IMG/VR virus record: IMGVR_UViG_3300017991_000302
Coordinates: 1 to 31,028 of that record
Length of the DNA stretch: 31,028 nucleotides
Strand: one strand, 5' to 3'
From: a virus
The notes under the pieces were generated by a model. The model had not been told where the DNA came from. It did not search any database and saw nothing but the letters and a program-made list of their open reading frames with translations. Below are positions 2,081 to 27,596 of this stretch, in pieces; position 1 is the first letter of the stretch; the number at the start of each line of letters is the position of its first letter. Position numbers and translations under genes: made by a program.

Positions 2081-4232
2081 AATAGTTAGAACTTGGTCAG
2101 AGGTACATCTTCTTGTAAAGTATTGTAAGGAAACTGGGTATTGTTCTTCTGACTTTGAAACAAGTGGGACTAATGCTATGTACCCTGGTAGTTACCCTAC
2201 TTTACTTAGCGTGGCTTTTCAACCTGGGAGTGCTTGGATTATCCCTCTTAAACATTTTGAATCTCCTTTTCTTAAGAACAGCGAATGGGTAAAAGTACTT
2301 AAATATTTTGGTCGAGAAATTATAACTAATCCAGCAATTGTAAAGATCGGGCAGAATATTAAGTATGAAATGAATTGGTGGAGAAAGTATGGGATCATTA
2401 TGTTGGGAAGGGTTTTTGATACGATGCTAGCTAAATACCTATTGGATGAAGAAAGACCTCATGGTTTAAAAGAAATGGTTAGCCGTTGGTTACCTCAGTA
2501 TGATGGGTATGATTTACCAGGTCAACCTGGGAATAAAGCATCAGTTGAACAATTGATAAAGTTCTGGTCGAATGTACCTCTTGACCCCCTTTCATTATAT
2601 GGAGCTCTTGATGCTGATCTTACTTTCAGGTTATATATTTTCTTTGAGACTCGATTAATAAGTAATAAGTTTTATCCTTTATTTAGAAATATGTTAATGA
2701 TGGCTTCGCGCGTACTAGCAGAGGCTGAGTGGGAGGGGATGACAGTCGATAGAGAATATCTTCGGGGGTTGAAGGATATTTATAAAGTAAAGATAGAAGA
2801 ATGTGAACGTAAGGTTAGAAGTATTCCTAAAATAGTACGATATGAAAAGAATAAAATATCGGATATGAAAAAACAAATGATTAAAGAGTTGGAAATTGAA
2901 ATTAAAGACCTTAAGAAATCGGGGGGGAATGATAGGTTAATTAAAAATAGAGAAGAAAAAATATCAAATTATTTGGCTGGGGTATTTACTACTAAAAAGG
3001 AATTAGAAAAAATAGCTCCTGTTAATTTTAATAGCCCAGTTCAAATGATTGATTTATTATATGAAAACCCAGATGGGTTTTATTTTAGGGTTCCTAAATT
3101 TACAAAAGATAAAAATACAAAGAAAGAAACAGATAGACCTTCTACTGCTGAAGATGCTCTGTTGGAACTTAAAGAATATGATACTTCTGGTTTCATCGAT
3201 GGACTCCTCGAGCTAAGGGGGTTAAATAAACTCAATTCTGCTTACGTGATAGGTATGTGGGAAAGGTTAAATTCTAATAATAAAATACATGGATCTTTCT
3301 TATTACACGGTACGGTTACCGGACGGCTCAGTAGTCGTGACCCTAATTTGCAAAACATACCACGTGATACCACAGCTAGTGACATTAAACGTATGTTCAT
3401 ATCTCCACCACGCAGACTCATCATGCAAGTGGACTATAGCCAAGCTGAACTTAGAGTATTAGCTTCAATGGCTAAGGAAGATACTATGATAGAATGGTTT
3501 TTAACTGGTAAAGATGTTCATTTAGCTTCTGCTTGTCTTAAATGGGGAAAAGATTATGATGAAATATTGAAAATATATAAAGATGAGGGACATCCAGAGT
3601 TTCTTAAATGGAAGGCACGGAGAAAGCAAGCAAAGACAATTAATTTTGGTATCGTCTACGGACAAACAGCTAAAAAACTGGCCGGATCTTTATCTAGTGA
3701 TGAACATAGCGTCTCTTTTGATGAGGCACAGGAGTTTCTCGATAACTTTAATCATCAATTCCCGCAAATTGCTAAGTTTATTAGAAGACAAGAGCGCTAT
3801 GCTAAGAAACATGGGTATGTCTACAATCTTTTTGGACGAAAGAGAAGACTTCCAAAAGTGGATTCAGACAATTGGGGAGAAAAATCAGAAGCCCTCAGAC
3901 AATCCATCAACGCACCCATTCAAGGAGCCGCATCTGATTACGCATTATTTTCATCAGTACTCATTAGAGAACATAGAAGAATGGGCAATTTACCCCTTAG
4001 CATGGTTCAAGTAGGGACTGTCCATGACTCTTTGATTTATTATATTGATCCTAAAGATATACATAAGGTTGTACCAATAGTTTTTAGGATTTGTAAGAAC
4101 CCCGAAACAAAGGAATGGTTCAATTTTGAAGTCCGCGATATTGAAATGAAAGTAGATTTTGAAATAGGTAAAAATTGGGGAGAATTAAAAGGTTATAATC
4201 CACAAGAAGATTATGAATTGTGGGTAGCTTAA
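2058..4232 (+). CDS. family A DNA polymerase with 3'-5' exonuclease
   Basis: 724 residues from ATG 2058; an in-frame TTG lies 12 bases upstream but the ATG is preferred. The N-terminus is a DnaQ-like proofreading domain: D-x-E at Asp32 and Glu34 (SSDFETSG), KIGQN for motif II, and Y-G-A-L-D-A-D for motif III. A lysine/glutamate-rich coiled-coil insertion lies at about 260-305. Polymerase motif A is QVDYSQAELR (Asp459). Motif B is RRKQAKTINFGIVYG (Arg522, Lys526, Phe530). Motif C is VHDS, keeping His656 and catalytic Asp657 but with Ser658 where most relatives have Glu. The 5' nuclease domain of bacterial Pol I is absent and is supplied separately by the gene at 6626. This is the replicative polymerase of the phage. 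Confidence 0.96.
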   Translation: MVLDYKYKIVRTWSEVHLLVKYCKETGYCSSDFETSGTNAMYPGSYPTLLSVAFQPGSAWIIPLKHFESPFLKNSEWVKVLKYFGREIITNPAIVKIGQNIKYEMNWWRKYGIIMLGRVFDTMLAKYLLDEERPHGLKEMVSRWLPQYDGYDLPGQPGNKASVEQLIKFWSNVPLDPLSLYGALDADLTFRLYIFFETRLISNKFYPLFRNMLMMASRVLAEAEWEGMTVDREYLRGLKDIYKVKIEECERKVRSIPKIVRYEKNKISDMKKQMIKELEIEIKDLKKSGGNDRLIKNREEKISNYLAGVFTTKKELEKIAPVNFNSPVQMIDLLYENPDGFYFRVPKFTKDKNTKKETDRPSTAEDALLELKEYDTSGFIDGLLELRGLNKLNSAYVIGMWERLNSNNKIHGSFLLHGTVTGRLSSRDPNLQNIPRDTTASDIKRMFISPPRRLIMQVDYSQAELRVLASMAKEDTMIEWFLTGKDVHLASACLKWGKDYDEILKIYKDEGHPEFLKWKARRKQAKTINFGIVYGQTAKKLAGSLSSDEHSVSFDEAQEFLDNFNHQFPQIAKFIRRQERYAKKHGYVYNLFGRKRRLPKVDSDNWGEKSEALRQSINAPIQGAASDYALFSSVLIREHRRMGNLPLSMVQVGTVHDSLIYYIDPKDIHKVVPIVFRICKNPETKEWFNFEVRDIEMKVDFEIGKNWGELKGYNPQEDYELWVA
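3208..3218 (+). repeat. TCGAGCTAAGG repeat, copy 1
   Basis: In the polymerase gene, read as Leu-Glu-Leu-Arg, a different codon frame from most other copies. Confidence 0.7.
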
Positions 4233-4250
4233 AGTACTATTAATAAATAT
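4231..4250 (+). promoter_or_regulatory. AAGTACTAT-type promoter-like element
   Basis: AAAGTACTATTAATAAATAT begins at the polymerase stop codon and ends at the next ATG. The same AAGTACTAT word followed by an A/T run is found at 15303 and, on the other strand, at 29343. If it is a promoter, transcription would begin at or just after the ATG at 4251, favouring the in-frame ATG at 4260. Confidence 0.35.
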
Positions 4251-4724
4251 ATGGGTTATATGTATAAAAGAGGTAAACTTATAGAGTATTCAACTAATTC
4301 CGCTATAATGAATATCGATATTCATTATGGTAGTGAGAATTTTAAATTCAATCTTAATGAAGAGATAAAAGTAGATGAAAATAAAATAAACCAAGAGATT
4401 AAGAATCAACCTTCTTCTTATGCTTTTCTTAGTATGCTTCATGTAAAACTTATCCGTCATGCTCAGGATAAGAAAAAGGAAATGGAGAAAATGTATGCTA
4501 AACTATATGTTAAATATAAAAATCAGATAGACCCTAAAACTAATCGTCCTACTAACGATTCATTAGCTAAAGAAAAGGTTATAAATTCTATAAGATTCTA
4601 TGAATTAGTGGATGAATATAATAGAATTCAATTTGAGGCTAATGTAATTGAAGTATGTGTTAAATCTTTTGAACAAAGATATTCGTTAATTCAAACTTTA
4701 TCAGCTAACATTAGAAAAGGATAG
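4251..4724 (+). CDS. unknown helical protein next to the ssDNA-binding protein
   Basis: 157 residues, not recognised. A short beta-like start (KLIEYSTNSAIMNIDIHYGSE) is followed from about residue 45 by a long charged helical stretch likely to form coiled coil. There is no membrane segment. An alternative ATG lies nine bases downstream at 4260. It ends two bases before the single-strand binding protein gene, and helical accessory factors of replication such as helicase loaders often sit here in T4-like phages. No loader motif is visible, so that role is only a possibility. Confidence 0.7.
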   Translation: MGYMYKRGKLIEYSTNSAIMNIDIHYGSENFKFNLNEEIKVDENKINQEIKNQPSSYAFLSMLHVKLIRHAQDKKKEMEKMYAKLYVKYKNQIDPKTNRPTNDSLAKEKVINSIRFYELVDEYNRIQFEANVIEVCVKSFEQRYSLIQTLSANIRKG

Positions 4725-4726
4725 TT

Positions 4727-5503
4727 ATGGCAAAAAAACTTTTGAAAGAAAGACTTCGGGAAAAGAAAGATGAATTGAAATCTCGGGGTGAACTTGGCAG
4801 TATTATATTTGTCAAGGATGGTGAAACTCGACGGATAAGGATTCTTCCTACTGGAGAGGAAAATGATTTTATCATTGAGGTAGATCAATTTTATCTGGGT
4901 TCAGATATTAAAGGGGTTATTTCTCCTGCCACTTTTAATGAACCCTGTGCTATCATGGAGGCATATGAGGAATTGAAAAATTCTGAAGATGATGATGATA
5001 AGGAACTGGCTTCTAAATTTTTTCCTAGGAAAAGGTATTTAGCTTATTGTGCTTTTTACAAGGATAAAAATGGTAAGGAATTGGATGAGGATTTAAGTCC
5101 TCGATTTATTCTTTTAACTTCTGGGCTTTATCAAGAGATTATCGATCTTTATTTGGATGAAGATGAGTGGGGGGATATGACTGATCCAGATAATGGATAT
5201 GATTTAAAGATATCTAGAAGTGGAAAGGGAAAAACGGATACAGAATATACTGTTAATCCCTGTAAACCTACTTCAGTCCCCAGAAAATTTAAAAAGAAGG
5301 TTTATGATATAGAGGCAGAGGTTAGAAAGATTATACCTTCTTATGAAGAGACCGAGAAATATATTAATAAATTCTTAGGACTTGATGCAGAGGAAGAGGA
5401 GGAAGAGGAATCAAACCCAAAGAGATCATCCAGGACTTCTGGTGGTACAAAGAGGGTTATTAAAAAGAAAGTAGTTAAGAAAAAAAGGACAGACGCTGAC
5501 TAA
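4727..5503 (+). CDS. gp32-like single-stranded DNA-binding protein
   Basis: 258 residues. The pattern of phage gp32-type proteins is visible: a basic N-terminus (KKLLKERLREKK), an OB-type core with RRIRILPTGEE, a long run of strands ending in GYDLKISRSGKGKTDTEYTV, and an acidic linker (seven Glu with Ala, near 222-229). Unlike the usual acidic tip, the last 30 residues are strongly basic (KRVIKKKVVKKKR) and end in DAD. The gene sits directly before the RecA/UvsX gene, sharing one base with its start, as expected for a protein that coats single strands during replication and recombination. The zinc-binding Cys/His cluster of T4 gp32 is not evident. Confidence 0.75.
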   Translation: MAKKLLKERLREKKDELKSRGELGSIIFVKDGETRRIRILPTGEENDFIIEVDQFYLGSDIKGVISPATFNEPCAIMEAYEELKNSEDDDDKELASKFFPRKRYLAYCAFYKDKNGKELDEDLSPRFILLTSGLYQEIIDLYLDEDEWGDMTDPDNGYDLKISRSGKGKTDTEYTVNPCKPTSVPRKFKKKVYDIEAEVRKIIPSYEETEKYINKFLGLDAEEEEEEESNPKRSSRTSGGTKRVIKKKVVKKKRTDAD

Positions 5504-6636
5504 TGGTAAAAGTATCTAAGGTTCTTAGCGATAAGGAATTATCTAATAAATATTATAATTCTGGGTTAGCAAGTAAAATTTCTGTACTACCAGAAGAATC
5601 TCTTTGGTTACCATCAAGAAATTTGTACCTGAATTATACAATGGGGGGAGGTATTCCGTATGGAAAAATTTGTGAAATATTTGGTGGGGAAAGCTCTGGA
5701 AAATCTCTTGTTGCTATGGACTTTGGATATTCTGCTCAATATCTGGGGGGAATAGTTTTATGGAATGATGCAGAACAAAGTTTTGATCCCCATTGGGCTA
5801 TAGCTAATGGATTACAATTAGATAAAACCCATATATTTAATGAAACCTCTATTGAATTAGTTTCTGATTGGGCTGCAGATATGACTACAACCATGAGGAG
5901 TAGGTTAAAAAATAATGAACCAATTCTTTTAGTTCATGATTCTATAGCTGCTTTTGATTGTGAAGCCAATATCAATTCTATTCAAACGGATGCTAAAGCT
6001 GAGATGGGGAATCGAGCTAAGGCCCTTTATAAATATCTTAGGATACGTAATCAACATTTTTCTGAATTAGGTATTATAGTTATATTTATAAATCAACTTC
6101 GAAAAAGGGTAGGAGTAACTAGGTTTGAAGATCCTGATACTACTCCTGGTGGAGAGGCAATGAAATTTTATGCTCATCAAAGGTTAGCTTTTTTTCGTAA
6201 AAAACAAATAGCCCCTGGAACTAAAACCAATAAGATTTGGATAGGAAATGAGGTATCAGTAAGATTAAAAAAGAATAAAGTTGCCCCTCCTAAACCCAGT
6301 TTTATAACTGAGATTTATTTTAGTGAAGAACATGGTAAGGTGGGGTTTGATAGATATTCTAATTTGGCTGAGTTGTTTGAGAGAACCGGAGTAATTTTAA
6401 GGAAAAAGGGATCAAGCCATTATTATTTTAGGAATAAGGTTATAGCTAATGGTAGAGATAATTTTCAAGAGATGCTTGAATCTGATCCTGATCTTCGTAG
6501 GAAATTATTAAGGAAATCTAAAATAAATACAATATCTAATGTCCAAAAAAGGTTGGATGATTTAAAGGACAGAGAAATAAATAGGTATCCTATAACAATA
6601 GTTAAAAAGAAATCCCAAGTTTCTGATGATGAATAG
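5503..6636 (+). CDS. RecA/UvsX-like recombinase
   Basis: 377 residues. Walker A is GGESSGKS (61-68), the catalytic Glu of the RecA family is in DAEQSFDPHW (Glu91), and Walker B is ILLVHDS (141-147). The strand-exchange loop region reads INQLRKRVG followed by a loop with TTPGGEAMKFYAHQRL, as in RecA L2. It forms ATP-dependent filaments on single-stranded DNA for homologous recombination and recombination-dependent replication. It lies between the ssDNA-binding protein and the 5' exonuclease, overlapping both neighbours. One copy of TCGAGCTAAGG lies inside it at 6012. Confidence 0.95.
   Translation: MVKVSKVLSDKELSNKYYNSGLASKISVLPEESLWLPSRNLYLNYTMGGGIPYGKICEIFGGESSGKSLVAMDFGYSAQYLGGIVLWNDAEQSFDPHWAIANGLQLDKTHIFNETSIELVSDWAADMTTTMRSRLKNNEPILLVHDSIAAFDCEANINSIQTDAKAEMGNRAKALYKYLRIRNQHFSELGIIVIFINQLRKRVGVTRFEDPDTTPGGEAMKFYAHQRLAFFRKKQIAPGTKTNKIWIGNEVSVRLKKNKVAPPKPSFITEIYFSEEHGKVGFDRYSNLAELFERTGVILRKKGSSHYYFRNKVIANGRDNFQEMLESDPDLRRKLLRKSKINTISNVQKRLDDLKDREINRYPITIVKKKSQVSDDE
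6012..6022 (+). repeat. TCGAGCTAAGG repeat, copy 2
   Basis: In the recombinase gene, read as Arg-Ala-Lys. Confidence 0.7.
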
Positions 6637-7540: not shown

Positions 7541-8123
7541 GAAGATATTTATAGTGGGTCCAAGTGGGGTGGGTAAAACCACCATAGCTTTATACATTTC
7601 AGAAAGGTATAATATTCCTTTTGTAAATACCTCTGCCAGTAAAATATGGCCTAAATATGGATTTAACGATCATGAAGATGCCCACAGGGCTTCCGCATTA
7701 AATCCTTCAAAGGGTTTGGATTACCAATTAGATATTATTAATGATCGGTATTTAGCATTATTTAAGGAAGAAGAATGGGTATGTGATAGAAGTCCTATTG
7801 ATAATTTCATTTATTTTATGCTCGAAATTTCTCCTTATATGGACCAAGGTATAACCGAGCAATTTATTAATAAGTGTAAACAAACTATGGAATTAGGTAA
7901 TGTTTTAATCATAATTCCTTTTACTAAGAATATTAAGTTAGAGAAAAGTCATAGGATAACTAATCCTTATTATCATCAAATGTTTAGTATATTAATGGAA
8001 TGGGTATTATGGAGTAAAGACATTAATATAAGTAAAATAGATCGAACCTTGGTTTTAAACCAATGGGATTTTAATCTTCGTAAACAAATCGTAGACGAAT
8101 GGGTAAAAAAGTGGTGGCCTTAG
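7533..8123 (+). CDS. P-loop deoxynucleoside/deoxynucleotide kinase-like protein
   Basis: 196 residues from a GTG that overlaps the previous stop by eight bases; no better ATG is near. The P-loop is GPSGVGKTT (9-17). A D-R-S at 85-87 (CDRSPIDN) matches the D/E-R-S motif of nucleoside and nucleotide kinases that binds the substrate. A lid arginine may lie in KSHRITNPYYHQ. No adenylate-kinase signature is seen. Together with the ThyA-family genes it suggests phage control of deoxynucleotide pools; the substrate is not readable. A small AAA-type ATPase is the alternative. Confidence 0.7.
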   Translation: MNKKIFIVGPSGVGKTTIALYISERYNIPFVNTSASKIWPKYGFNDHEDAHRASALNPSKGLDYQLDIINDRYLALFKEEEWVCDRSPIDNFIYFMLEISPYMDQGITEQFINKCKQTMELGNVLIIIPFTKNIKLEKSHRITNPYYHQMFSILMEWVLWSKDINISKIDRTLVLNQWDFNLRKQIVDEWVKKWWP

Positions 8124-9043
8124 CAATGGCCGATCTTCATTTTCATGATTGGAAACAGTTTAATAAAAATGGTGAGAGAACTAAGGTAACAATAGATTTT
8201 TTAACTTATCTATTTGAAAGATCCCATAAAGAAGATATCCCTATTTTATTTTCGGGAGACCTTTTTCATACTCCTAATGGTTTATCATCCAATACTATTT
8301 TAAAATTTATGGATTTTATAAGCCATGTATTAAAAGTATATCCAAACACTATTGTTCTGGGGATAACTGGAAATCATGATGGGAATTTTTTATGGAAGGC
8401 CATGTGTAAAGCTTTTCCAAGTCTTTTTTTAGATTTGGATTATAATTACTCTACTATGAAAAATAAATGTAGAGTATATGGTATTCCTTATATTAAAAGA
8501 AATACTGGTTTGGTTGATAAAATTAAAGAAATTTCTAAAGAACCCGGAGATAAAATTCTTCTTTTACATACTGAACTTTATGGAGCATCTGATCCGAGTG
8601 GTTATGAACCAGAACCGCAAAATTTACCACGAAACCTTAACGCGCTTTTTAAGGATTTTAAATTAGTTCTAGCAGGTCATGTCCATAAATATACTCCGAT
8701 TTCAAAAAACATAGTTATGGTGGGAGCGCCTAACCAACAACGTAAATCGGATGCTGGTTGTGAAATGGGGTATTTAGAAATATATGGGGATTTTACTTAT
8801 AAATTTATTCCCTATAAAGCACTTGGTTTTAAATTTTATAAAGAGGGGGATGAACATCCAGATACAGAAGATTTTTGGATTCCCATTCCTAAACCTAGAA
8901 AATTAGAAAAACATTCAAATATTACTTTTAAGCCTAATATGGATAAAGTAAGGTTAGCTGAAAAATATGCAAAAGCCACGGGAGTAAAAAATAAGAGAAA
9001 AGTACAGACGCTAATAGAAGTTTTAAAGGAAACCGAAGAATGA
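8099..9043 (+). CDS. SbcD/Mre11-like nuclease subunit (T4 gp47 type)
   Basis: 314 residues. Metallophosphoesterase motifs follow in order: MADLHFHD (10-17), SGDLFH (52-57), GNHDG (91-95), LLLHTE, and AGHVHKY (192-198). With the SbcC-like protein encoded next it forms the Mre11-Rad50 type complex that opens and trims DNA ends; in T4 this pair is required for recombination-dependent replication and host DNA breakdown. The ATG overlaps the kinase gene by 25 bases and the stop overlaps the SbcC-like start (ATGA). Confidence 0.93.
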   Translation: MGKKVVALAMADLHFHDWKQFNKNGERTKVTIDFLTYLFERSHKEDIPILFSGDLFHTPNGLSSNTILKFMDFISHVLKVYPNTIVLGITGNHDGNFLWKAMCKAFPSLFLDLDYNYSTMKNKCRVYGIPYIKRNTGLVDKIKEISKEPGDKILLLHTELYGASDPSGYEPEPQNLPRNLNALFKDFKLVLAGHVHKYTPISKNIVMVGAPNQQRKSDAGCEMGYLEIYGDFTYKFIPYKALGFKFYKEGDEHPDTEDFWIPIPKPRKLEKHSNITFKPNMDKVRLAEKYAKATGVKNKRKVQTLIEVLKETEE

Positions 9044-10866
9044 TTGATTTTGGAAAAACTGATATAGAGGGGTATGGACCCATTGATCATGAGGTATTTG
9101 ATTGGAATATATCTGGATTGAACATTCTTCAAGCTCCTAATGGTTATGGAAAAACCACTTTTATTAATGCCCTTGTTTGGTGTGTATATGGAAAACCTTT
9201 ATCGGGGTCAGTAGAGAGATGGTCTCATCTTCAAACTAAGGATTATAGAGGGGTAAAAGTTAAACAAGAAGTTTATATAGATGGGATTTCTATTTTAATT
9301 ACTCGGTATAAGAATTATCCTAAATATAAAAATAGTTTGATCCTTGAAATTGATGGGGAAATTCCAGATAGATTAAAAACTGCTAATAAGGATGAGATTC
9401 AAAGAGAAATTGAAGAATTAATAGATTATAGTTATGATTTATTTAAAAACTCAATTATTTTTGGTCAAAAGCTTAAAAGAATTATATCTGAAACAGGCCC
9501 CAATAAGAAAAAGGTTTTTGATGAGGCTTTTCAAATAACCTATCTTCCTAAAGCTAAGAAAATAGCTGGAAATAAATTAACGGAATTTAAGGTTGAAGAA
9601 CATAAAAGGGAGATATCTTGGTATAATGTTATGGGAGTTGTAGAATCTAAGAAAGCTGAGATAGAGACTCAAAAACTTATGATTGAGAATTTCGAAATTG
9701 ATAAACAAAATCAGATAAATGAATTGAATCATGATTTAGAGGAAAAACAGGATGAACATAAGGAATTATTAGAAAAACATCTGGGTTTAGAAGATTCGCT
9801 TAGAGCTTATATTTATGAGAAAGAAATCTTTGAAAAGGATCTTTTATCGGGGAAAGAAATGGGGGAATTGGAAAGATTGCTTTATTCAAATAAGAGTAAA
9901 CTTGAAAGGGCGTTATATGATAATGAGGGTACTTTAAATAGGATTAATAAATTAAAATCAGATCTTAAGAATTTACCAGAGAAGTGCCCCAGGTGTGGGG
10001 CGCTTTTAGATGAAAAGAAAAAACAGTATGAAAAGAGCTTAATACAAAAATCCTTAGGGGATGAAGAAAAACAGTATAAAGAAGATAGAAAACTTATAAG
10101 AAGTCTAAAAAGGTATATCAAAGGGGTTGAAAACGAGCTGTCTAGTGCACAAAAAGTACAAGAAGAATATGATAACGTAGTTGAGCAGATTAATATACTA
10201 GAAACAGCTAAAAATTTAATTGAAGGGTCTAAAGAAAAGATAGATTTGTTGAAACAAGAAATTGAAAAGGTAAAGAATAGGCAACTTGTAAATAATTTAG
10301 ATGACCTTAACCTCGAGCTAATTGAGTTAGAAAAAAAGTTAAGACTTCGAGCTAAGGAACTAAGAGAAGTTCGTAAAGATGTATCGGCTTACGAATGGGT
10401 GATTAAAAACCCTTTGTCTAATTCTGGAATAAAAGCTTTTGTATTTAATTTAATGTTGGATGATATAAATGAGAGATTAGAGTTTTATACTAAATACATC
10501 GGATTTCAAGTAGCATTTTTCATAGATATGAAATCAGCACATAAGAATCTTGAGACTTATGTATTTATAGGGGATAATCCTGTTCCTTATAATGATCTTT
10601 CTGGGGGACAACAACAATCAGTGGATGTGGCTACTGCTTTTGCTATTCATGATGTAGTTGCAGGATCTAAAGCTTGTAATTTATTAATTATGGATGAGAT
10701 ATTTGAATCTCTTGATAAAGATAATATTGAGATTATTTCTGAAGTTATTCAAGATAAAGCTCAGGATAGATGTTTATGGTTAATTACTCATAACCCTGAA
10801 TTTAACCCTACAAATTCTAATATAGTTCAAGTATCGTTTAATAAAGGGATTACTAGTCTGTCTTGA
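9040..10866 (+). CDS. SbcC/Rad50-like ATPase subunit (T4 gp46 type)
   Basis: 608 residues, short for Rad50 but typical of phage gp46. Walker A is APNGYGKTT (32-40). Two long coiled-coil arms flank a zinc hook CPRCG with Cys316 and Cys319. The ABC signature LSGGQQQS is near 520 and Walker B LLIMDEIFESLD near 550, followed by a switch His in ITHNPEF. It partners the SbcD-like nuclease. The gene carries two copies of TCGAGCTAA 34 bases apart (10313 and 10347), read in different codon frames. It ends the first uninterrupted operon; the next gene starts 46 bases later. Confidence 0.94.
   Translation: MIDFGKTDIEGYGPIDHEVFDWNISGLNILQAPNGYGKTTFINALVWCVYGKPLSGSVERWSHLQTKDYRGVKVKQEVYIDGISILITRYKNYPKYKNSLILEIDGEIPDRLKTANKDEIQREIEELIDYSYDLFKNSIIFGQKLKRIISETGPNKKKVFDEAFQITYLPKAKKIAGNKLTEFKVEEHKREISWYNVMGVVESKKAEIETQKLMIENFEIDKQNQINELNHDLEEKQDEHKELLEKHLGLEDSLRAYIYEKEIFEKDLLSGKEMGELERLLYSNKSKLERALYDNEGTLNRINKLKSDLKNLPEKCPRCGALLDEKKKQYEKSLIQKSLGDEEKQYKEDRKLIRSLKRYIKGVENELSSAQKVQEEYDNVVEQINILETAKNLIEGSKEKIDLLKQEIEKVKNRQLVNNLDDLNLELIELEKKLRLRAKELREVRKDVSAYEWVIKNPLSNSGIKAFVFNLMLDDINERLEFYTKYIGFQVAFFIDMKSAHKNLETYVFIGDNPVPYNDLSGGQQQSVDVATAFAIHDVVAGSKACNLLIMDEIFESLDKDNIEIISEVIQDKAQDRCLWLITHNPEFNPTNSNIVQVSFNKGITSLS
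10313..10321 (+). repeat. TCGAGCTAA repeat, copy 3
   Basis: In the SbcC-like gene, read as Leu-Glu-Leu. The next copy is 34 bases on in another frame. Confidence 0.7.
10347..10357 (+). repeat. TCGAGCTAAGG repeat, copy 4
   Basis: In the SbcC-like gene, read as Arg-Ala-Lys. Confidence 0.7.
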
Positions 10867-11472: not shown

Positions 11473-12187
11473 TCATGTATGGGTAATAGCTTACATAAAC
11501 CGTGAATATGTACATAGAGTCGAAACAGACTTACTAAAGCATGGGTATGGAGCTATTAGGGTTTATATCCCCACAGTTAGAATCCTGAAAAAACAATTTA
11601 AAAATAGGAACATTTATGATTATGTTCCTCTTTTGTTTAATTACGGGTTTTTTCAATTACCTTATAATAAAGCTTGTGATGTAGAATTTCTTAAGAAATT
11701 AAAAGAAAAAATTCCAGCTATTTATGCTTGGGTAGTTGATCCTATAAAAGTACTTACTACTAAACCAAAACTCCGGGTGGATAATAAAGATTCTAAACCT
11801 GAGAAAGAAGTTCCGAAAGTGGCTATTGCAAAAGAAGAAGAAATAGTTAATCTTTTAAAGGCTGCGGAAAACATGTCAGTATTTTCTGATAAAATAATTG
11901 ATAAATTAGAAATAGGAGCTTTTATCACACTTCAAGGATATCCTTATGAGGGAATGCCTGCAGAGATAGTAGAAATCAATAAAAAACAAAAATGTGTAAA
12001 AGTTCGCTTACTGTTAGAAACTATGATTACTACAGCTACAGTAAGTTTTGAGAATATCTTTTATACAGTTTATGCTGATTATGATAAATCATGTAAAGAG
12101 GATAGCCTTGATAGGATAGATGAATTTGGAAAAAGAAGTTTGGATAAAATTTATGCTAAGATAGGTTACAGTGGAGAGGACTATTAA
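11450..12187 (+). CDS. NusG/RfaH-like transcription elongation factor
   Basis: 245 residues. The first 95 resemble a NusG N-terminal domain: a VWVIAYINREYVHRVETDLL start, YIPTVRILKKQ, and a VPLLFNYGFFQLP strand that matches the PLFPGYVF segment of NusG. After a charged linker (about 100-150) the C-terminus has a KOW-like beta domain, GAFITLQGYPYEGMPAEIVEI. NusG proteins bind RNA polymerase and alter pausing and termination; a phage copy may favour phage operons or antitermination. The start overlaps the nuclease gene by 23 bases. A boxA-like word near 27834 gives it a possible target. Confidence 0.75.
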   Translation: MSLTVQYDHVWVIAYINREYVHRVETDLLKHGYGAIRVYIPTVRILKKQFKNRNIYDYVPLLFNYGFFQLPYNKACDVEFLKKLKEKIPAIYAWVVDPIKVLTTKPKLRVDNKDSKPEKEVPKVAIAKEEEIVNLLKAAENMSVFSDKIIDKLEIGAFITLQGYPYEGMPAEIVEINKKQKCVKVRLLLETMITTATVSFENIFYTVYADYDKSCKEDSLDRIDEFGKRSLDKIYAKIGYSGEDY

Positions 12188-13166
12188 TCCCGATGTTTGG
12201 GATATTTTAACCGAAGATGAGAAAACAGCAATTAGCCTTTCATTGGGGCATAATAAATCTACGTGGGAAAGTGGTGAGATAATGGGGAGAGCCCATTTTA
12301 AATATTTAGAAATACAAAAAAGAGCCAGGAAATATCTAGAGATTTTTACTAATCATTTCGAAAAATATGAGAGTCTATTTCCTGAATCTATTTCCTCAAC
12401 CCTTACTTTTTCTTTTAAAGAATATTTGCATCTAACCATGATTAAAAGGATGCACATATCCAGGGCAGTTACTAATATTAAGGATTCTTCTTATGGGGTG
12501 GCTAGTAAAAGAAACAAATCCATTATTCATGAAATCGAAAAACTTAAGAAGATTAATAGTGAATCTGCTTTAGACTTATACGGGCTTATTATGGATTTTG
12601 ATAGGTGGAATAATTTTAGAATTCTTCCTTTAGAAATTCAGGAACCTTCCGCTTTTAAAAGAAGGAATAAGGCTAGAGATGTAAAGCATTTGAAAAAGAT
12701 GATTTCATTACCCCGATATTCTGTATTAACTATTATTGAGAAATATTCATATAGTGGGAAATATAATAAATTATATTTACCCCTTATTTCTAGGTACATT
12801 GAAGGAAATTATGAGGTCATTCCTATACGAAGAAAAAATATAAATATTGAAGAAGTTTCACGAGCTGGACTTTTCTTATTTGAGAGTCGAGCTAAGGCTG
12901 ATGAATTCGGGGCTCTGGTTGCTGGATATTTTATAAATAATTTTAAAAATTGTAAAAGTGGGCAGAAATTTTGGCCTGAGTACCGGGATAGGGTTTTGGA
13001 AGCTGTTAATTTTAAACAATTACAGAATATCCATAAATCAAGAACTTACTTGGATCAGGCTTGGTTTGATCGAGATTTAATAAGAAAAAGAAAAAAACAA
13101 CTGGATAGAACACAGGATGAAAAAACGTTTTATCTTGGTAAAAATAGAGCCTTTTTTAGTTGCTAG
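12171..13166 (+). CDS. unknown helical protein
   Basis: 331 residues from a GTG overlapping the NusG-like stop by 17 bases; the next in-frame ATG would remove about 38 residues. No family is recognised. It is rich in Lys, Arg, Tyr and Ile, mostly helical, without membrane segments or signal peptide. A basic segment KRRNKARDVKHLKK near 160-175 and a tail rich in KKQ/RK could bind nucleic acid. The coupling to a NusG-like gene suggests a role with DNA or RNA. It contains one TCGAGCTAAGG at 12887. Confidence 0.75.
   Translation: MERTINPDVWDILTEDEKTAISLSLGHNKSTWESGEIMGRAHFKYLEIQKRARKYLEIFTNHFEKYESLFPESISSTLTFSFKEYLHLTMIKRMHISRAVTNIKDSSYGVASKRNKSIIHEIEKLKKINSESALDLYGLIMDFDRWNNFRILPLEIQEPSAFKRRNKARDVKHLKKMISLPRYSVLTIIEKYSYSGKYNKLYLPLISRYIEGNYEVIPIRRKNINIEEVSRAGLFLFESRAKADEFGALVAGYFINNFKNCKSGQKFWPEYRDRVLEAVNFKQLQNIHKSRTYLDQAWFDRDLIRKRKKQLDRTQDEKTFYLGKNRAFFSC
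12887..12897 (+). repeat. TCGAGCTAAGG repeat, copy 5
   Basis: In the unknown gene at 12171, read as Arg-Ala-Lys. Confidence 0.7.
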
Positions 13167-15342: not shown

Positions 15343-15990
15343 ATGGAAGGAAAAACGATCGTTAAAACTGTAGAATTGGGACAAGGCTATGTCTTGGCCA
15401 AATTTGATGATGGAGAAATTGCCTTTCTTCAGGTAGTTACTCCGGATGGGTTGGATGAAGAATTAAAGGAATTTCTTGAAGAAGAAGAGCCTAAGAAAGA
15501 ATCTAAACCCAAATCTAAAAAGGAATCTAAGCTCAAAGAAGAACCCAAAGAGGAAGAATCCGAAGAGGAAGAAGGAGAAGAGGAAGAAGGAGAAGATTAT
15601 ACTTGGGCCGATCTTCAAGGGATGGATTACGAAGCCCTCAAAAAATTCTGTAAGGAATATGATCTTGATGTTGATGTAAAGAGTTATGATGAGGATGAGG
15701 AAGATGATCTTCGAGAGGATATTGCTGAAGAATTAGGAATCTCAGTTGATTCTGAAGAAGAGGAAGAAGGAGAAGAAGATGAGGAGGAAGAAGGAGAAGA
15801 AGATGATTCATATACTTGGGAGGATCTTGAAAAGATGGATTCCGAAGAACTCTCCCAAGTTTGTGAGGAAGAAGAACTCAACACTAATCCTACTGATTAT
15901 GATGATGATGAAGAGGATGATCTTCGTCGAGCTATCGCTAAAGAACTTGGGATCACGCCCCCTAAAAAACCTTCTAAGAAGAAAAAGTAA
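15343..15990 (+). CDS. very acidic protein with a duplicated 48-residue HeH/SAP-like module
   Basis: 215 residues. Residues 1-36 form a small beta-rich head (KTVELGQGYVLAKFDDGEIA). Two copies of one module follow at 86-133 and 157-204, each starting YTW-x-DL, with M-D-x-E-x-L, a Cys, then DEEDDLR-x-x-IA-x-ELGI. The helix-extension-helix look recalls SAP/HeH folds. The modules are separated by runs of Glu/Asp (62-85, 137-156), and the tail is a basic KKPSKKKK. Acidic linkers suggest DNA mimicry or a flexible scaffold. It is the first gene after a promoter-like element and shares one base with the next start. Confidence 0.8.
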   Translation: MEGKTIVKTVELGQGYVLAKFDDGEIAFLQVVTPDGLDEELKEFLEEEEPKKESKPKSKKESKLKEEPKEEESEEEEGEEEEGEDYTWADLQGMDYEALKKFCKEYDLDVDVKSYDEDEEDDLREDIAEELGISVDSEEEEEGEEDEEEEGEEDDSYTWEDLEKMDSEELSQVCEEEELNTNPTDYDDDEEDDLRRAIAKELGITPPKKPSKKKK

Positions 15991-17809: not shown

Positions 17810-18601
17810 ATGGAAAAAAAACTTAGAATACAATTATTTGATGAGGAAGGGAGATTAATGGATGATCGAACCGTTTCTCAAGATCCGGAATTTAGTAAAG
17901 GTCCAAAAGAAGTTCATAAAGGACTTTTTAGAATTGAATTTACTCTTGAAACTCCGGATGATGTGGATAAATCCAAGATTTATATGGATAAATTAGTGGG
18001 TAACTTATCTTTGGAAGTTCCCAAAAAGATTAAGAAGTCTCAAATTATTCCTAATGACCCTCAATATCGAGAAAATCTACTTGAAGGCATTTTAAAAATT
18101 GAGAATCTGGACCAAGACATTTTGATTAAGGAATTGAGAAAACTTGGATTTGTTTTCAGGACTTGGGATTTTCTTCAGATGGTAAATTTACCAGAATTAA
18201 ATATCAAAGATCGTCATCAGGACAAATATGAATGGATGATTAGAGAAATTCGACGAGCTAAGAACCCTAAATCAGATAAATATGATCCCATGTTGGTTTT
18301 TGGGATTAAATTGATGGATGAACCAGATGAAAGGGTAGTTATTTATTTGAATGGAGAATACCTTAAAACCATTAAAATCTCAATTCCCTCTAATCCTAAG
18401 GAGGTTGTGAAGAGAACAGATATACTTAAATTTCCTGAGTATATGACTCCTGAAGAACGTGAGAAATTCCGTATCGAGCTTAGATCTTATGAAAATAATC
18501 CTGAAAAACAAATTTCAAAATTCTTTGATCGATGGATGAAATGGGTAAAGAATGTCCCAAATTTGGCTAATCCAAATCCCCATAAAAAAGATCAGGATTA
18601 G
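17810..18601 (+). CDS. unknown acidic/basic mixed protein
   Basis: 263 residues from ATG 17810; an upstream in-frame TTG lies inside the terminator and is rejected. The protein is soluble and charged, with a beta-rich N-terminal half (KKLRIQLFDEEGRLMDD), a central MVNLPELNIKDRHQDKYEWM segment and a C-terminal helix ending in PHKKDQD. No family is recognised. No promoter is obvious between the terminator and this gene, so it may depend on read-through. Confidence 0.7.
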   Translation: MEKKLRIQLFDEEGRLMDDRTVSQDPEFSKGPKEVHKGLFRIEFTLETPDDVDKSKIYMDKLVGNLSLEVPKKIKKSQIIPNDPQYRENLLEGILKIENLDQDILIKELRKLGFVFRTWDFLQMVNLPELNIKDRHQDKYEWMIREIRRAKNPKSDKYDPMLVFGIKLMDEPDERVVIYLNGEYLKTIKISIPSNPKEVVKRTDILKFPEYMTPEEREKFRIELRSYENNPEKQISKFFDRWMKWVKNVPNLANPNPHKKDQD

Positions 18602-18631
18602 TTGCAATTAGGATATATTATTATTAATTTG
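18602..18631 (+). promoter_or_regulatory. Bacteroidetes-type promoter, phage-extended form
   Basis: TTG at 18602-18604, 19 bases, then TTAATTTG at 18624-18631 (seven of eight bases of the -7 box). TTGCAATTAGG matches the TTGCA...GG extension of the family. The ATG of the next gene is 19 bases beyond. Confidence 0.6.
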
Positions 18632-18649
18632 CATTAATTATAATTATAT

Positions 18650-19024
18650 ATGGAACTAACATCTGCTCAATGTACCATTGTCGAAAAGGTATGCTCTGCT
18701 CAATTTGCATCACTTGAAGATCTTCTTAGGATGGATGATTTGGGGATATTAGATAATGGGGAACATTATAATAAAATTCTCGCTGATGTGGGATTAGATA
18801 AATTAGATTTTGATAGAGAAGTAATTGAAACTTATGATAGATTTCAGATTATTCAAATGAGTCCTAATAAATTATTTGAGATCCTTGATATTGTAGATAT
18901 TGAGATATTTGAATACATTATGTTTCTTTACCGTAATCAGTTGGAGAATAAATATCCTAAGGCATATGCTAACCTCATGCAAAAGCTATTTATTTGGAAA
19001 CAAATTCATATATTTCGATCATGA
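18650..19024 (+). CDS. unknown acidic helical protein
   Basis: 124 residues, not recognised. It is acidic and predominantly helical, with Leu/Ile/Phe-rich repeats such as NKLFEILDIVDIEIFEYIMF (near 75-95), a long hydrophobic-acidic helix but not a clear membrane span. It starts directly after the promoter at 18602 and overlaps the KTSC gene by four bases. Confidence 0.65.
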   Translation: MELTSAQCTIVEKVCSAQFASLEDLLRMDDLGILDNGEHYNKILADVGLDKLDFDREVIETYDRFQIIQMSPNKLFEILDIVDIEIFEYIMFLYRNQLENKYPKAYANLMQKLFIWKQIHIFRS

Positions 19025-19467: not shown

Positions 19468-20271
19468 ATGAAACTGAATGACTTGTATTTTCCGGTGCAA
19501 AAGATTCCGAATCCATCTTTAGAAGATGGTGTGGAATTGCCTTCTGGACTGCAATATGCGGTACAGATAACGAAACCAGATGGTACTTCTAGAATAGTAA
19601 ATTACTGTTCTGAAATATATCATTTGGTCCCAAATGATCAAATTATTCCTCTGTTCTTGGATGAAATCTCTAAGTATTATCAAATAGAAGTTTCTTCGAA
19701 AATTAGAGATTGGGCAAGATTTTTTATCGATTTTGTAATTATGGATAAAGCTATCCAAATTATAAAAGGTGATAATGTTTTTCCTAAAATTCGAGTAATT
19801 AATTCTTATGATGGGTCTTATCGATATCAATATATCGAAGGACTTTGGAGACAAATTTGCAGTAATGGATTAGGAGTATGGGAGAAAAAAACAAGAATTT
19901 CTAAAACCCATACTCCAGCTATTGGGGAGGAAGTTTCTTTTGAAAAGGTAATGCAGTTAACTTCGAAATTTTTAGCAGATTTATCGAAACATACTGATGT
20001 TTACCAAGAACTTGCGGATTCTTCAGTTAGAGATGCAACTTCTCGAATTGAGGAAGTAATCGAAGAAACGGGATTCCCATCTTCTCTTCAGGAGGATGTT
20101 CTTTATCGGGTAGAGGAAGAAAGAAACCTATTGAATTTGAATGAGATAAATGATTGGTTGGTATATAATGCTTTCAATTATCAACTCAATCATAATGAGG
20201 GGTTGAAGGCAAAAGAAAATAAGAAGGAGAGGATGGATCAGGAGGTTCTCGATTTCTTACTTTCTTACTGA
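19468..20271 (+). CDS. DUF932-like (phage/plasmid-like) protein
   Basis: 267 residues. The pattern R-V-I-N-S-Y-D-G-S-Y near 128-137, followed by EGLWRQICSNGL near 144-155, matches the DUF932 family of phage and plasmid proteins, often found near recombination genes but without assigned activity. The C-terminal third is helical and acidic. It uses a preceding GGTACTATG context and is followed by an overlap with the next start. No enzymatic residues can be named. Confidence 0.65.
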   Translation: MKLNDLYFPVQKIPNPSLEDGVELPSGLQYAVQITKPDGTSRIVNYCSEIYHLVPNDQIIPLFLDEISKYYQIEVSSKIRDWARFFIDFVIMDKAIQIIKGDNVFPKIRVINSYDGSYRYQYIEGLWRQICSNGLGVWEKKTRISKTHTPAIGEEVSFEKVMQLTSKFLADLSKHTDVYQELADSSVRDATSRIEEVIEETGFPSSLQEDVLYRVEEERNLLNLNEINDWLVYNAFNYQLNHNEGLKAKENKKERMDQEVLDFLLSY

Positions 20272-20627
20272 TGAAGACAAATCGAGAAGTTAATAGGGAT
20301 CTTATTATAATTGTATTAATAGGAATCCTATTAGGTTTTCTCATCGCTTTCATGGATAGGGATAAATCTCCTGATATTGAACCCTCTATGATTCCCCCGC
20401 CACCAGATAATACTGGCGGTTGGTACTATGATTTCGATGAAGAAGAATGGATGAATCTCTATCGAGGTAATCCTCGAGCTAAGGGGGTAGAAAGAACCCA
20501 TAAGCCCTATTTAGATAAGGATGAAATTCAGGAATACCTTGAGGATCATATTGATGGGTATCTTGAAAGTACTTATTGGGGTGAGGAATATGATTTAGAT
20601 GATGAACTTGAAGATGAAATAAAATGA
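20271..20627 (+). CDS. single-span membrane protein with acidic tail
   Basis: 118 residues. Residues 9-27 (RDLIIIVLIGILLGFLIAFM) are one membrane span. The tail is proline-rich (SMIPPPPDN) then strongly acidic (DLDDELEDEIK). Arrangement suggests an inner-membrane anchor with a large soluble acidic part. One copy of TCGAGCTAAGGGGG is at 20474. It shares one base with the previous stop and four with the next start. Confidence 0.65.
   Translation: MKTNREVNRDLIIIVLIGILLGFLIAFMDRDKSPDIEPSMIPPPPDNTGGWYYDFDEEEWMNLYRGNPRAKGVERTHKPYLDKDEIQEYLEDHIDGYLESTYWGEEYDLDDELEDEIK
20474..20484 (+). repeat. TCGAGCTAAGG repeat, copy 6
   Basis: In the membrane-protein gene at 20271, read as Arg-Ala-Lys. Between copies 5 and 6 lie near matches TCGAGCTAT at 15927 and ACGAGCTAAG at 18253. 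Confidence 0.7.
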
Positions 20628-22237: not shown

Positions 22238-22251
22238 AACTTTAAAGCCTT

Positions 22252-23037: not shown

Positions 23038-23041
23038 GTTG

Positions 23042-23132: not shown

Positions 23133-23597
23133 ATGGCAACAACAGACGTAAAAGAAATTAAAAGAATGGTAAATGAGGTAATAGATCCTATCATTGGTGA
23201 AGCTTTGGAAAGTTTGAATAGGCATTTACTTAAGGACATTTCTAAAGCGCTAATAGAGATTCATAACGAGGTAAAAGTGGGAATGATGGATATAGATTTT
23301 CAACTTATGGATTTGAGAACTGCATTATTAGCAGAGTTATTTCAGTTATTTGTCCAAAAAGGAGTATCTGTTGTAGGAATGGCTTTATCTGAAGATCAAT
23401 TAGATTTTTCTATTTTGATGGATGATGGTTGGAATGATATTAATTATATGACTCAAGATATTCATAATCATATGAAAGAAAATTCTAATCTTCGGGTGTT
23501 ATGGCTTTGGAATAATTGTTCTAAGGTTACTGCATCCGGGGATGGAAAAAGTTTAAGATTTATATTCAATCCTCGAGCTAACGATATTAAAGGATAA
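23133..23597 (+). CDS. unknown acidic protein
   Basis: 154 residues, not recognised. A helical N-terminus with heptad-like spacing (about 5-70) suggests oligomerisation, followed by an alpha/beta part (DFSILMDDGWNDINY; NLRVLWLWNNCSKVTA). No signal peptide or membrane span. A TCGAGCTAA copy lies at its 3' end (23573). About 165 bases of non-coding DNA follow, holding the next promoter. Confidence 0.65.
   Translation: MATTDVKEIKRMVNEVIDPIIGEALESLNRHLLKDISKALIEIHNEVKVGMMDIDFQLMDLRTALLAELFQLFVQKGVSVVGMALSEDQLDFSILMDDGWNDINYMTQDIHNHMKENSNLRVLWLWNNCSKVTASGDGKSLRFIFNPRANDIKG
23573..23581 (+). repeat. TCGAGCTAA repeat, copy 7
   Basis: At the 3' end of the gene at 23133, read as Arg-Ala-Asn. Confidence 0.7.
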
Positions 23598-23740: not shown

Positions 23741-23763
23741 CATTATATTTAAATTATATAATT

Positions 23764-24248: not shown

Positions 24249-24262
24249 AAACCAATTAAATC

Positions 24263-24826: not shown

Positions 24827-24839
24827 AAATCCCAATATC

Positions 24840-25406: not shown

Positions 25407-25417
25407 ACTCATTAATT

Positions 25418-25935: not shown

Positions 25936-26032
25936 ATCTCTGGAGCGACAGTATTTCCGATTCGAAGGTAATCCTGAAAAACAAGCTAAAATAGTATCTA
26001 AGATCACAACCCTTAAATATACAAAATCATGA
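25904..26032 (+). CDS. very small basic protein
   Basis: 42 residues beginning MKEKSKAKQIKSLERQ and ending ITTLKYTKS. Support comes from the ATATGAAAG start, the ATGA overlap with the next gene, and a likeness to the helical core of the protein at 25016. Without it a 93-base gap would be the largest in the array. Function unknown. Confidence 0.5.
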   Translation: MKEKSKAKQIKSLERQYFRFEGNPEKQAKIVSKITTLKYTKS

Positions 26033-26226
26033 AAACAATTCTTGACCAAGAATTCGAGGACCTTAAAACCTTTATGGAACAAAATGTAGGTCCTTACTCT
26101 TTTATTGAATCCTGGAATAATGCCAGGGAAAGAGCTAAAAAAGTATTCTCTAAGGAAGCTATTTCCATGCTTGATGGATCCGGCTTTATCAAGAAATTCA
26201 AAATCCGTCACATCCAAAATAACTAA
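26029..26226 (+). CDS. small unknown protein
   Basis: 65 residues with two helices (LDQEFEDLKTFMEQN; NNARERAKKVFSKEAISM) and a basic end. No family is recognised. The start context is AAATCATGAAAAC, as elsewhere in the array. Confidence 0.55.
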   Translation: MKTILDQEFEDLKTFMEQNVGPYSFIESWNNARERAKKVFSKEAISMLDGSGFIKKFKIRHIQNN

Positions 26227-26228
26227 TC

Positions 26229-26411
26229 ATGAGAGCTTATATTTCAGATCCCCATGATGTCGAAGATATCCAAAGGGAAATCGATAATGCTATTCACGCA
26301 CTCGAAGAAGTGCTTGCTGGGCTAACAATCCTAGACATTAAATTATACCCCACGCTCCAAGATCGTTATTTCTTTCAAATTAACTATAGAGGGTACTATG
26401 AAGAGGGCTAG
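26229..26411 (+). CDS. small unknown protein, last of the array
   Basis: 60 residues: an acidic amphipathic helix (DVEDIQREIDNAIHALEEVL) then a short beta hairpin rich in Tyr. No family is recognised. It begins two bases after the previous stop and is followed by a 167-base non-coding stretch. Confidence 0.55.
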   Translation: MRAYISDPHDVEDIQREIDNAIHALEEVLAGLTILDIKLYPTLQDRYFFQINYRGYYEEG

Positions 26412-26466
26412 TGCCCCAAAAAAGTACCTAAAGAATTACTATCTAAAATTAACTTCAAACAACTAG

Positions 26467-26493
26467 CAGCCAGGGAAGTAAACCCCCTGGCTG
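26467..26493 (+). promoter_or_regulatory. perfect hairpin upstream of the gene at 26579
   Basis: CAGCCAGGG (26467-26475) and CCCTGGCTG (26485-26493) pair over nine bases around AAGTAAACC. No T-run follows directly, so it is not a standard terminator; a processing site, attenuator or operator is possible. Confidence 0.5.
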
Positions 26494-26578
26494 TCCTGTA
26501 GGGCTATCCAAAAGATTTTTCTCCACAATACCAGAATTTCTAATCCTATATCCCACCCCCCCAAACAAAGAAAATATC

Positions 26579-27427
26579 ATGCAGAGAATACCCAGACCAA
26601 AAGGAACAACCATGTTAGCTTTAGAATATCAAAAGCTAAATACAGACGAAGCTCTAGATCTCTTAATCCAACATATAGTAACTTACTACGCTATCAACGG
26701 ATTTCGATATCAAGGTAAATCTGTATCTATCCCAGACCTAGCCCAAAAGCTCAACCTACCCCAAAACAAAGTAACTAATGCAATATCTAATATAGGAACA
26801 TCAATGGGTAATCTTGCTGACCCGGAAGCTTTAAACGAAACAGCTAAAACACTATTAACATTATCCACCTCTTTTTCACTCTCAGACAGAGGACTCATTC
26901 AAAGCCAGCTCGAAACTCTTCTGGCCTCTCAAGCTGGGACCTACAAACCCTTTATCTCATCCGAAGTAAACAAAGTATTAAAGCTAATGCTCGAATCTAA
27001 TAAGTCTATACAAGAACTCTATAAAGCCTTCTTCAATACTAATTCTTCTACAGTCAATATACTAAATATACATAATAAAGATAACGAACAGGACTATCTA
27101 ACACCACAAAAAGCCTTAGATCTCATCTCTGATTCCCAGCCTGCCTTGCAGAGTCCGCCTGCCGATACTAATAAGCCTGTTTCAAGTTCCCAATCAAGCT
27201 TCTCTGACAGGGCTAAAGAGCTTTGGATTAGGCATAGTATAGGGGACAATCCGAGTGTCCGTGAAGGGAGATCTGGCACCGAGGCCCTAAGAGCCCTGGA
27301 GCCTTCCGACGATACGCATACGCCTATAAGCCAAGGAGCTACAAAGCCCTCTGGCCCTCATGAAGACCACTTTTCCCGCCGGGGATACGAAATAGTGGAC
27401 GACGATTCCTTACCTACATCAGATTAG
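26579..27427 (+). CDS. unknown protein with helix-turn-helix-like head and disordered tail
   Basis: 282 residues from the ATG at 26579 in the local ATATCATG context; an ATG at 26612 is also possible. Residues 15-75 are helical with SIPDLAQKLNLPQNKVTNAI, which looks like a helix-turn-helix. A helical middle (110-170) may oligomerise. From about 185 the chain is Ser/Pro/Asp-rich and probably disordered. A DNA-binding head with an oligomerising middle fits a regulator or a terminase small subunit, but neither can be confirmed. Codon use is C-rich, and the 3' end shares the GGCC/AGCC words of the non-coding DNA that follows. Confidence 0.7.
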   Translation: MQRIPRPKGTTMLALEYQKLNTDEALDLLIQHIVTYYAINGFRYQGKSVSIPDLAQKLNLPQNKVTNAISNIGTSMGNLADPEALNETAKTLLTLSTSFSLSDRGLIQSQLETLLASQAGTYKPFISSEVNKVLKLMLESNKSIQELYKAFFNTNSSTVNILNIHNKDNEQDYLTPQKALDLISDSQPALQSPPADTNKPVSSSQSSFSDRAKELWIRHSIGDNPSVREGRSGTEALRALEPSDDTHTPISQGATKPSGPHEDHFSRRGYEIVDDDSLPTSD

Positions 27428-27469
27428 TCTTCGAGCCACGTGGCCGTCAAAGGCCCAGTGGCCTCGGTG

Positions 27470-27480
27470 TCGAGCTAAGG
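27470..27480 (+). repeat. TCGAGCTAAGG repeat, copy 8
   Basis: In non-coding DNA after the gene at 26579, so it cannot be explained by codon choice. Confidence 0.7.
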
Positions 27481-27587
27481 AGCCATTAAGCCAATTCAGG
27501 CCTTTGGTAGCTTTAAGGTCCTCCATCAGGATTATTGAAAGGAGCCAAATGGCCTTCAAGGCTAAATGGCCCAGGAGGAAAGGTCCC

Positions 27588-27596
27588 TCGAGCTAA
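27588..27596 (+). repeat. TCGAGCTAA repeat, copy 9
   Basis: In non-coding DNA, 118 bases after copy 8. A related GCGAGCTATTGCG starts at 27597. Confidence 0.7.

What the first reader, a model, noticed from the sequence alone, without database searches (positions are those of the whole stretch)
3208..27596. Strand-biased, frame-independent word TCGAGCTAA repeated along the + strand
Exact TCGAGCTAA occurs at 3208, 6012, 10313, 10347, 12887, 20474, 23573, 27470 and 27588, six of them followed by GG. The reverse complement was not found anywhere in my reading. A random 9-mer is expected about 0.12 times per strand in 31 kb, and less in low-GC DNA. The copies are read in two codon frames (Arg-Ala-Lys and Leu-Glu-Leu) and two are non-coding, so codon bias alone does not explain them. 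With near matches at 15927 and 18253, the spacing is about 2.2-4.3 kb through a window rich in recombination genes. This resembles Chi-type or other polarised replication/packaging words. The function itself is inference.
Basis: partly seen in the sequence, partly recalled or inferred. Interest (0 to 1): 0.85.

Follow-up and report, generated by a model that had tools for sequence, protein, structure and literature searches.

The report
One-strand 8-base word in phage family
A group of uncultured tailed phages (probably of Bacteroidota) carries the exact 8-base word TCGAGCTA many times, on one DNA strand only and mostly outside the head-gene region; it looks like the site words at which a few known phages have single-strand nicks in their packaged DNA, a puzzle open since the 1960s, but nicking has not been shown here.

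Summary
TCGAGCTAA occurs at all nine stated + strand positions and never on the - strand; it is the most over-represented 9-mer of the window. The unit is the sharp 8-mer TCGAGCTA with a softer tail (W-K-G-S). In eight related phage records it occurs 69 times on the coding strand and once on the other. A synonymous-codon shuffle predicts 2.9 coding copies against 64 seen. It falls in all three codon frames and in non-coding DNA, lies inside genes at random, and is kept at homologous sites where flanking codons drift. Word-bearing phages form one clade (100% bootstrap); its sister clade lacks the word. The word is dense in the replication module, present in the tail module and at chance level in the head/terminase module. 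The same scan run on phages tf and PaP3 returns the mapped tf nick word, and the predicted PaP3 one, as top 9-mer with matching numbers. Best reading: recognition words for site-specific single-strand interruptions (about 50%). Rivals: a Chi-like signal (host or phage), another DNA-binding site, an RNA-level signal. Stoperators, promoters and restriction avoidance are disfavoured. No nickase was identified, no nick measured, and the host genome could not be tested.

The parts
3208..3215 (+). TCGAGCTA word in DNA polymerase gene (frame Leu-Glu-Leu)
   Evidence: same site in G001, G003, G019, G021 and L042; replaced by other codons in the sister clade
6012..6019 (+). TCGAGCTA word in UvsX recombinase gene (frame Arg-Ala)
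   Evidence: identical 8-mer in 7 of 7 clade orthologues tested; only 4 of 1117 windows of the gene are as conserved
10313..10320 (+). TCGAGCTA word in SbcC-like gene
   Evidence: shared with G019 and G016
10347..10354 (+). TCGAGCTA word in SbcC-like gene, 34 bp after the previous one
   Evidence: unique to this phage
12887..12894 (+). TCGAGCTA word in gene 12171-13166 (unknown function)
   Evidence: 8-mer identical in 4 of 4 clade orthologues
15927..15934 (+). TCGAGCTA word (followed by T) in gene 15343-15990
   Evidence: shared with G001
20474..20481 (+). TCGAGCTA word in gene 20271-20627
   Evidence: kept in G001 and G019 although the proteins are only about 40% identical
23573..23580 (+). 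TCGAGCTA word in gene 23133-23597
27470..27477 (+). TCGAGCTA word in non-coding region
   Evidence: homologous non-coding region of G019 carries the word at its 718
27588..27595 (+). TCGAGCTA word in non-coding region
27425..27660 (+). Non-coding region with two words, repeated GAGCYA and GGCC boxes, ending near TTTATTTAGATTAA; follows an HTH-type gene
   Evidence: counterpart in G019 at about 663-930 after the homologous gene
26579..27427 (+). Gene of unknown function next to the non-coding region; possible small-terminase or origin-binding protein (inference)
   Evidence: homologues in the family genomes that reach this place; low-confidence model, no PDB match
5503..6636 (+). UvsX-like recombinase
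   Evidence: phrog_97, 5e-55
4727..5503 (+). gp32-like single-strand DNA-binding protein
   Evidence: PF08804, 3.4e-11
8099..10866 (+). SbcD-like and SbcC-like nuclease subunit genes
   Evidence: phrog_100, phrog_77

Best explanation
TCGAGCTA(W-K-G-S) is a sequence-specific, strand-specific recognition word of the phage itself. Most likely it marks localized single-strand interruptions (nicks) in the packaged genome, as TACT/RTGMC does in Pseudomonas phage tf. SHOWN here: the word, its strand restriction, its excess over codon-preserving shuffles, its clade restriction, its regional distribution and its conservation at sites. INFERRED: a phage-encoded or phage-directed nickase reads the word as duplex DNA late in infection and cuts one strand, leaving ligatable nicks in most virion DNA molecules. 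The benefit (packaging or ejection flexibility, recombination, escape from defence) is unknown, as in all known nicked phages.
For: (1) Positive control: the same order-2 Markov scan puts the experimentally mapped nick word of phage tf first (TACTGTGAC 11/0, expected 0.15, score 36.4) and the predicted one of PaP3 first (8/0, expected 0.10, 27.2); the window gives TCGAGCTAA 9/0, expected 0.07, score 34.6, and G019 14/0, 51.9. (2) One strand only: 69 to 1 in eight records. (3) Sharp core with a short soft flank, present in both main frames; tf nick words behave alike (PMC3517423). (4) Lineage restriction with low DNA similarity, as in the 61 WACTRTGAC phages (PMC11780129). (5) Uneven distribution: 56 copies in 163 kb of replication-module genes, 7 in 46 kb of tail genes, 1 in 84 kb of head/terminase genes, expectations 2.5, 0.3 and 0.6; nick words are also concentrated in one part of the genome. 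(6) Random position inside genes. (7) No second conserved element within 25 bp on either side.
Against: No nick has been measured and no nickase gene identified. The function of phage nicks is unknown, so the analogy rests on sequence statistics alone. All signs listed would also fit a Chi-like or other DNA-binding word. The non-coding cluster of variant boxes at 27425-27660 could mean a binding protein rather than a nickase. Because nearly all genes of these modules lie on one strand, a DNA-level and an RNA-level signal cannot be separated by orientation.
Confidence: 0.5

Rival explanations
1. Chi-like recombination signal: the word is read in one orientation by the host's RecBCD/AddAB (or a phage helicase-nuclease) and turns degradation into recombination or protection.
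For: Octamer size, polarity and excess fit. In lambdoid phages Chi is over-represented and concentrated between replication genes and the terminase (PMC3784561), so regional concentration alone does not exclude it. The window carries recombination genes.
Against: The phage encodes UvsX, a gp32-like protein and SbcCD; phages with both a recombinase and a RecBCD inhibitor avoid Chi, though whether this phage has an inhibitor is unknown. Excess is about 22-fold against a published O/E of 2.3-3.1 for Chi in lambdoids. The sister clade with the same genes lacks the word.
Confidence: 0.17
2. Binding site of another phage DNA protein (replication, genome organisation or packaging), with the non-coding cluster at 27425-27660 as its main array (origin or pac-like) and the genic words as satellites.
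For: The non-coding region after the HTH-type gene carries two words plus GAGCCA, GCGAGCTA and GGCC boxes in the window, and a similar region exists in G019.
Against: No homologous array could be found beyond these two genomes. Strict one-strand orientation over tens of kb is unusual for a simple binding site. Words are at chance level in the head module.
Confidence: 0.17
3. RNA-level signal in the sense transcripts (processing, pausing, antitermination or regulated decay).
For: Every word but one reads in the direction of transcription; head genes, which may belong to another transcript class, are at chance level.
Against: Random position within genes, no start or stop association; no flanking signal within 25 bp; words occur in tail genes as well as replication genes. 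Orientation cannot separate this from DNA-level readings.
Confidence: 0.11
4. Stoperator-like repressor sites that stop transcription elongation.
For: Cluster A mycobacteriophage stoperators are asymmetric, numerous and mostly oriented with transcription (PMC6550527).
Against: In phage PackMan 16 of 21 stoperator-like sites lie at gene boundaries or between genes; here 3 of 69 do, as random positions would. No repressor or integrase was recognised among the proteins scanned (not every gene was scanned).
Confidence: 0.03
5. By-product of codon or protein constraint, or of orientation-biased avoidance of a restriction site.
For: The UvsX site encodes Asn-Arg-Ala-Lys, which is invariant in nearly all relatives.
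Against: 64 coding copies against 2.9 in synonymous shuffles, in all three frames and in non-coding DNA. The other strand is at expectation, not depleted (0 seen against 0.72 expected in the replication module), so this is enrichment, not avoidance.
Confidence: 0.02

Closest known systems
Localized single-strand interruption words of Pseudomonas phage tf and relatives (TACT/RTGMC; WACTRTGAC), PMC3517423 and PMC11780129
   Same: 8-9 bp word, about 9-14 copies on one strand only, sharp core, mostly inside genes, kept across phages with little DNA similarity, unevenly distributed; recovered by the same scan with the same strength
   Different: Different word, different phage lineage (large phages, probably of Bacteroidota); nicks not measured; confined to replication and tail modules
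phiKMV-like nick words (CGACxxxxxCCTA/CTCCGG) and T5 nicks
   Same: Strand-specific words linked to nicks in virion DNA
   Different: Longer or weaker consensus, few sites; T5 recognition is looser
Chi (RecBCD octamer GCTGGTGG) in Rec- lambdoid phages
   Same: Polarised octamer, over-represented, concentrated in part of the phage genome
   Different: Chi is a host word and is avoided by recombinase-plus-inhibitor phages; over-representation far weaker
Stoperators of cluster A mycobacteriophages
   Same: Asymmetric, numerous, oriented with transcription, family-specific variants
   Different: 13 bp, mostly at gene boundaries, in phages with a repressor

Membership tests
Phage nick words (localized single-strand interruptions) | Exact short word on one strand only, clearly above chance | tested here: met
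Phage nick words (localized single-strand interruptions) | Word conserved across related phages with low nucleotide similarity, absent outside the group | tested here: met
Phage nick words (localized single-strand interruptions) | Uneven distribution along the genome | tested here: met
Phage nick words (localized single-strand interruptions) | Ligatable nick at the word in virion DNA | not testable with these tools
   needs native virion DNA or raw reads
Phage nick words (localized single-strand interruptions) | Nicking genes (sciA/sciB or equivalent) | tested here: inconclusive
   no clade-specific nuclease gene seen; the late region is incomplete in most records, and no search with T5 sci genes was made
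Chi | Over-represented and skewed in the host genome | not testable with these tools
Chi | Phage relies on host recombination or lacks a RecBCD inhibitor | tested here: inconclusive
   the phage has its own UvsX, gp32-like protein and SbcCD; inhibitor unknown
Stoperators | Sites at gene boundaries | tested here: not met
   3 of 69, against 16 of 21 in PackMan
Phage promoters (T7-like) | Upstream positions and further conserved bases; mostly intergenic | tested here: not met
   no second element within 25 bp, mid-gene positions
Type III R-M orientation bias | Depletion of one orientation rather than enrichment of the other | tested here: not met

The most novel reading that the evidence does not exclude
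A large, uncultured family of tailed phages, probably of Bacteroidota, has evolved its own nick word TCGAGCTA, used in the replication and tail modules but not in the head module. This would be an independent origin of programmed strand-specific genome nicking in phages carrying T4-type recombination genes, linking nicks to recombination rather than packaging.
Probability: 0.35. Interest if true: 0.8.

Novelty: new variant of a known kind. Interest (0 to 1): 0.64.

Why it matters
Site-specific nicks in packaged phage DNA have been known since the 1960s and their purpose is still unknown. A sequence-only scan that returns known nick words and also finds an equally strong new word in an unrelated phage family turns a curiosity of T5 and some Pseudomonas phages into something that can be surveyed in metagenomes. 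The clade-versus-sister contrast and the absence of excess in head genes give concrete tests of the packaging, recombination and expression hypotheses. If the word is instead a Chi-like signal, it would be a candidate Chi word for bacteria where I know of none.

Tried and rejected
Codon or protein bias: rejected by synonymous shuffles. Simple base composition: rejected. Promoter: no upstream element. Stoperator: wrong gene positions. Restriction avoidance: the other strand is not depleted. Rfam: no match in the window. Literature search for the letters TCGAGCTAA: only unrelated papers among those listed. Host by genome scan: a single weak hit in a proteobacterial MAG, not used. Gene 26579-27427 as small terminase: model pLDDT 48 and no PDB match, left as inference. 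Other viral lineages with paired words: 55 contigs, the high counts being mostly local repeats and none looking like the clade; this search only finds words 5-35 bp apart. A word shared by the sister clade: GAGCTAAGG 9/0 against 0.8 expected, several at conserved Arg-Ala-Lys codons, not pursued. HK022 proved a poor Chi control because it carries abc2. Several control phages (L5, phiP27, SfV) were not in the collection.

Full report
OBSERVATION. All nine coordinates are exact, the reverse complement is absent, and TCGAGCTAA is the most over-represented 9-mer of the window. The window is the whole of a 31,028-bp IMG/VR record. Gene order is collinear with the 85-kb relative G019, in which the window's left end corresponds to about 60.8 kb and the order runs through G019's end to its first 0.7 kb. 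The window is therefore the replication and early part of a phage of roughly 85 kb.

WHAT THE WORD IS. In relatives the invariant unit is TCGAGCTA. Single-base variants are mostly rare; TGGAGCTA, TCGAGCCA and CCGAGCTA show a weaker excess. After the core, A or T, then G or T, G, and G or C are preferred, and this holds in both main codon frames. No other position within 25 bp carries comparable information. The 69 copies in eight records reduce to 42 distinct sites: 19 in one frame, 17 in the second, 2 in the third, 4 non-coding.

STATISTICS. With protein and codon usage held fixed, 64 coding copies stand against 2.9 expected; for the window alone 8 against 0.36. TCGAGCTA is the top 8-mer over this null in each of W, G001, G019, G003 and G020. 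Strand counts in full records: 13/0 (G001), 21/1 (G019), 6/0 (G003), 8/0 (G020), 6/0 (G029), 5/0, 4/0 and 3/0 in shorter ones. G002 and G018 are near copies of parts of G003 and G019 and were left out of pooled counts.

PHYLOGENY AND SITES. A tree of six concatenated replication proteins separates word-bearing phages from all others with 100% bootstrap. The sister clade (G004, G023, L015, L016, L036) has 0-1 copies although its polymerase is about as close to the window's as some clade members' are to each other. At homologous sites clade members keep the 8-mer while flanking codons vary: in UvsX it is identical in 7 of 7 clade orthologues, in gene 12171 in 4 of 4. In UvsX the sister clade encodes the same Asn-Arg-Ala-Lys with other codons. 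Other sites are unique to one phage, for example 10347, so sites also turn over.

REGIONAL PATTERN. Replication module 56 copies in 163 kb of genes (2.5 expected); tail module 7 in 46 kb (0.3 expected); head/terminase module 1 in 84 kb (0.6 expected). Part of the head-module sample is short contigs assigned to the clade only by terminase identity of 82-86%, but G019 alone shows the same contrast.

CONTROLS. The same agnostic scan on Pseudomonas phage tf puts its mapped nick word first (11/0, expected 0.15), on PaP3 the predicted one (8/0, expected 0.10); the window gives 9/0, expected 0.07. phiKMV's longer gapped consensus is not found by this scan, and HK022 (abc2+) shows no Chi excess. Stoperator-like sites of PackMan lie at gene boundaries in 16 of 21 cases; TCGAGCTA does so in 3 of 69, as random positions would.

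MECHANISM. tf, its relatives and phiKMV-like phages show that a short, one-strand, within-gene word can mark nicks in most virion genomes. Every sequence feature tested here agrees with that class; the biochemical feature could not be tested. Chi remains the main named rival: in lambdoids it is also regionally concentrated. Against it stand the phage's own recombination genes and the much stronger over-representation. A DNA-binding word with an array in the non-coding region 27425-27660 is also open: that region and its G019 counterpart hold words plus related GAGCYA and GGCC boxes. RNA-level readings cannot be excluded by orientation because almost all genes of these modules share one strand.

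HOST. Probably Bacteroidota. G019 carries a FISUMP-domain gene, a family that rang only in a Bacteroides among 14 control genomes. Named isolates with related TerL or UvsX include Flavobacterium, Cellulophaga and Chryseobacterium phages. This is indirect, and no host genome could be scanned.

WHAT IS SHOWN AND WHAT IS INFERRED. Shown: the word, strand restriction, excess over codon-preserving nulls, clade restriction, regional distribution, site conservation. Inferred: that a protein reads it as DNA, that the protein nicks, and that the host is a Bacteroidota member.

Noticed in passing
window 27425-27660; G019 about 663-930: Non-coding region dense in GGCC and GAGCYA boxes between an HTH-type gene and an AT-rich stretch, similar in two divergent phages; possibly an origin or pac region.
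   Followed up: partly
window 27943-28600; G019 about 1020-1490: Both genomes have here a small unknown gene followed by a hairpin plus T-run built on ggatacaa/ttgtatcc, i.e. the same layout; blastp found no similarity between the two proteins.
   Followed up: no
G001 (reversed) 18271-18888, G019 (reversed) 54020-54667, G003, G023, G024, G005: A single opposite-strand gene of about 206 aa sits between tail and replication modules in every family genome that covers the place; function unknown.
   Followed up: no
G001 and G003 records: A second strand-biased word GTACTATT(A) (G001 12/2 for the 8-mer), weaker, and close to codon expectation in G019.
   Followed up: partly
G031 record (77.9 kb), also G005: Repeated TATATTTG-like words resembling the Bacteroidota promoter element TAnnTTTG (from memory), which would fit the proposed host phylum.
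   Followed up: no
sister clade G004, G023, L016, L036: GAGCTAAGG 9 to 0 on the coding strand against 0.8 expected; partly conserved Arg-Ala-Lys codons, possibly a relic of a related word.
   Followed up: partly
window 28979-30963, - strand: Opposite-strand accessory block; gene 29573-30610 weakly matches a cell-surface glycopolymer family (E 0.0014, below cut-off).
   Followed up: no
G019 record, first 65 bases: Short inverted duplication at the contig start and a gene split between the two contig ends: probably an assembly artefact at the join of a circular map.
   Followed up: partly
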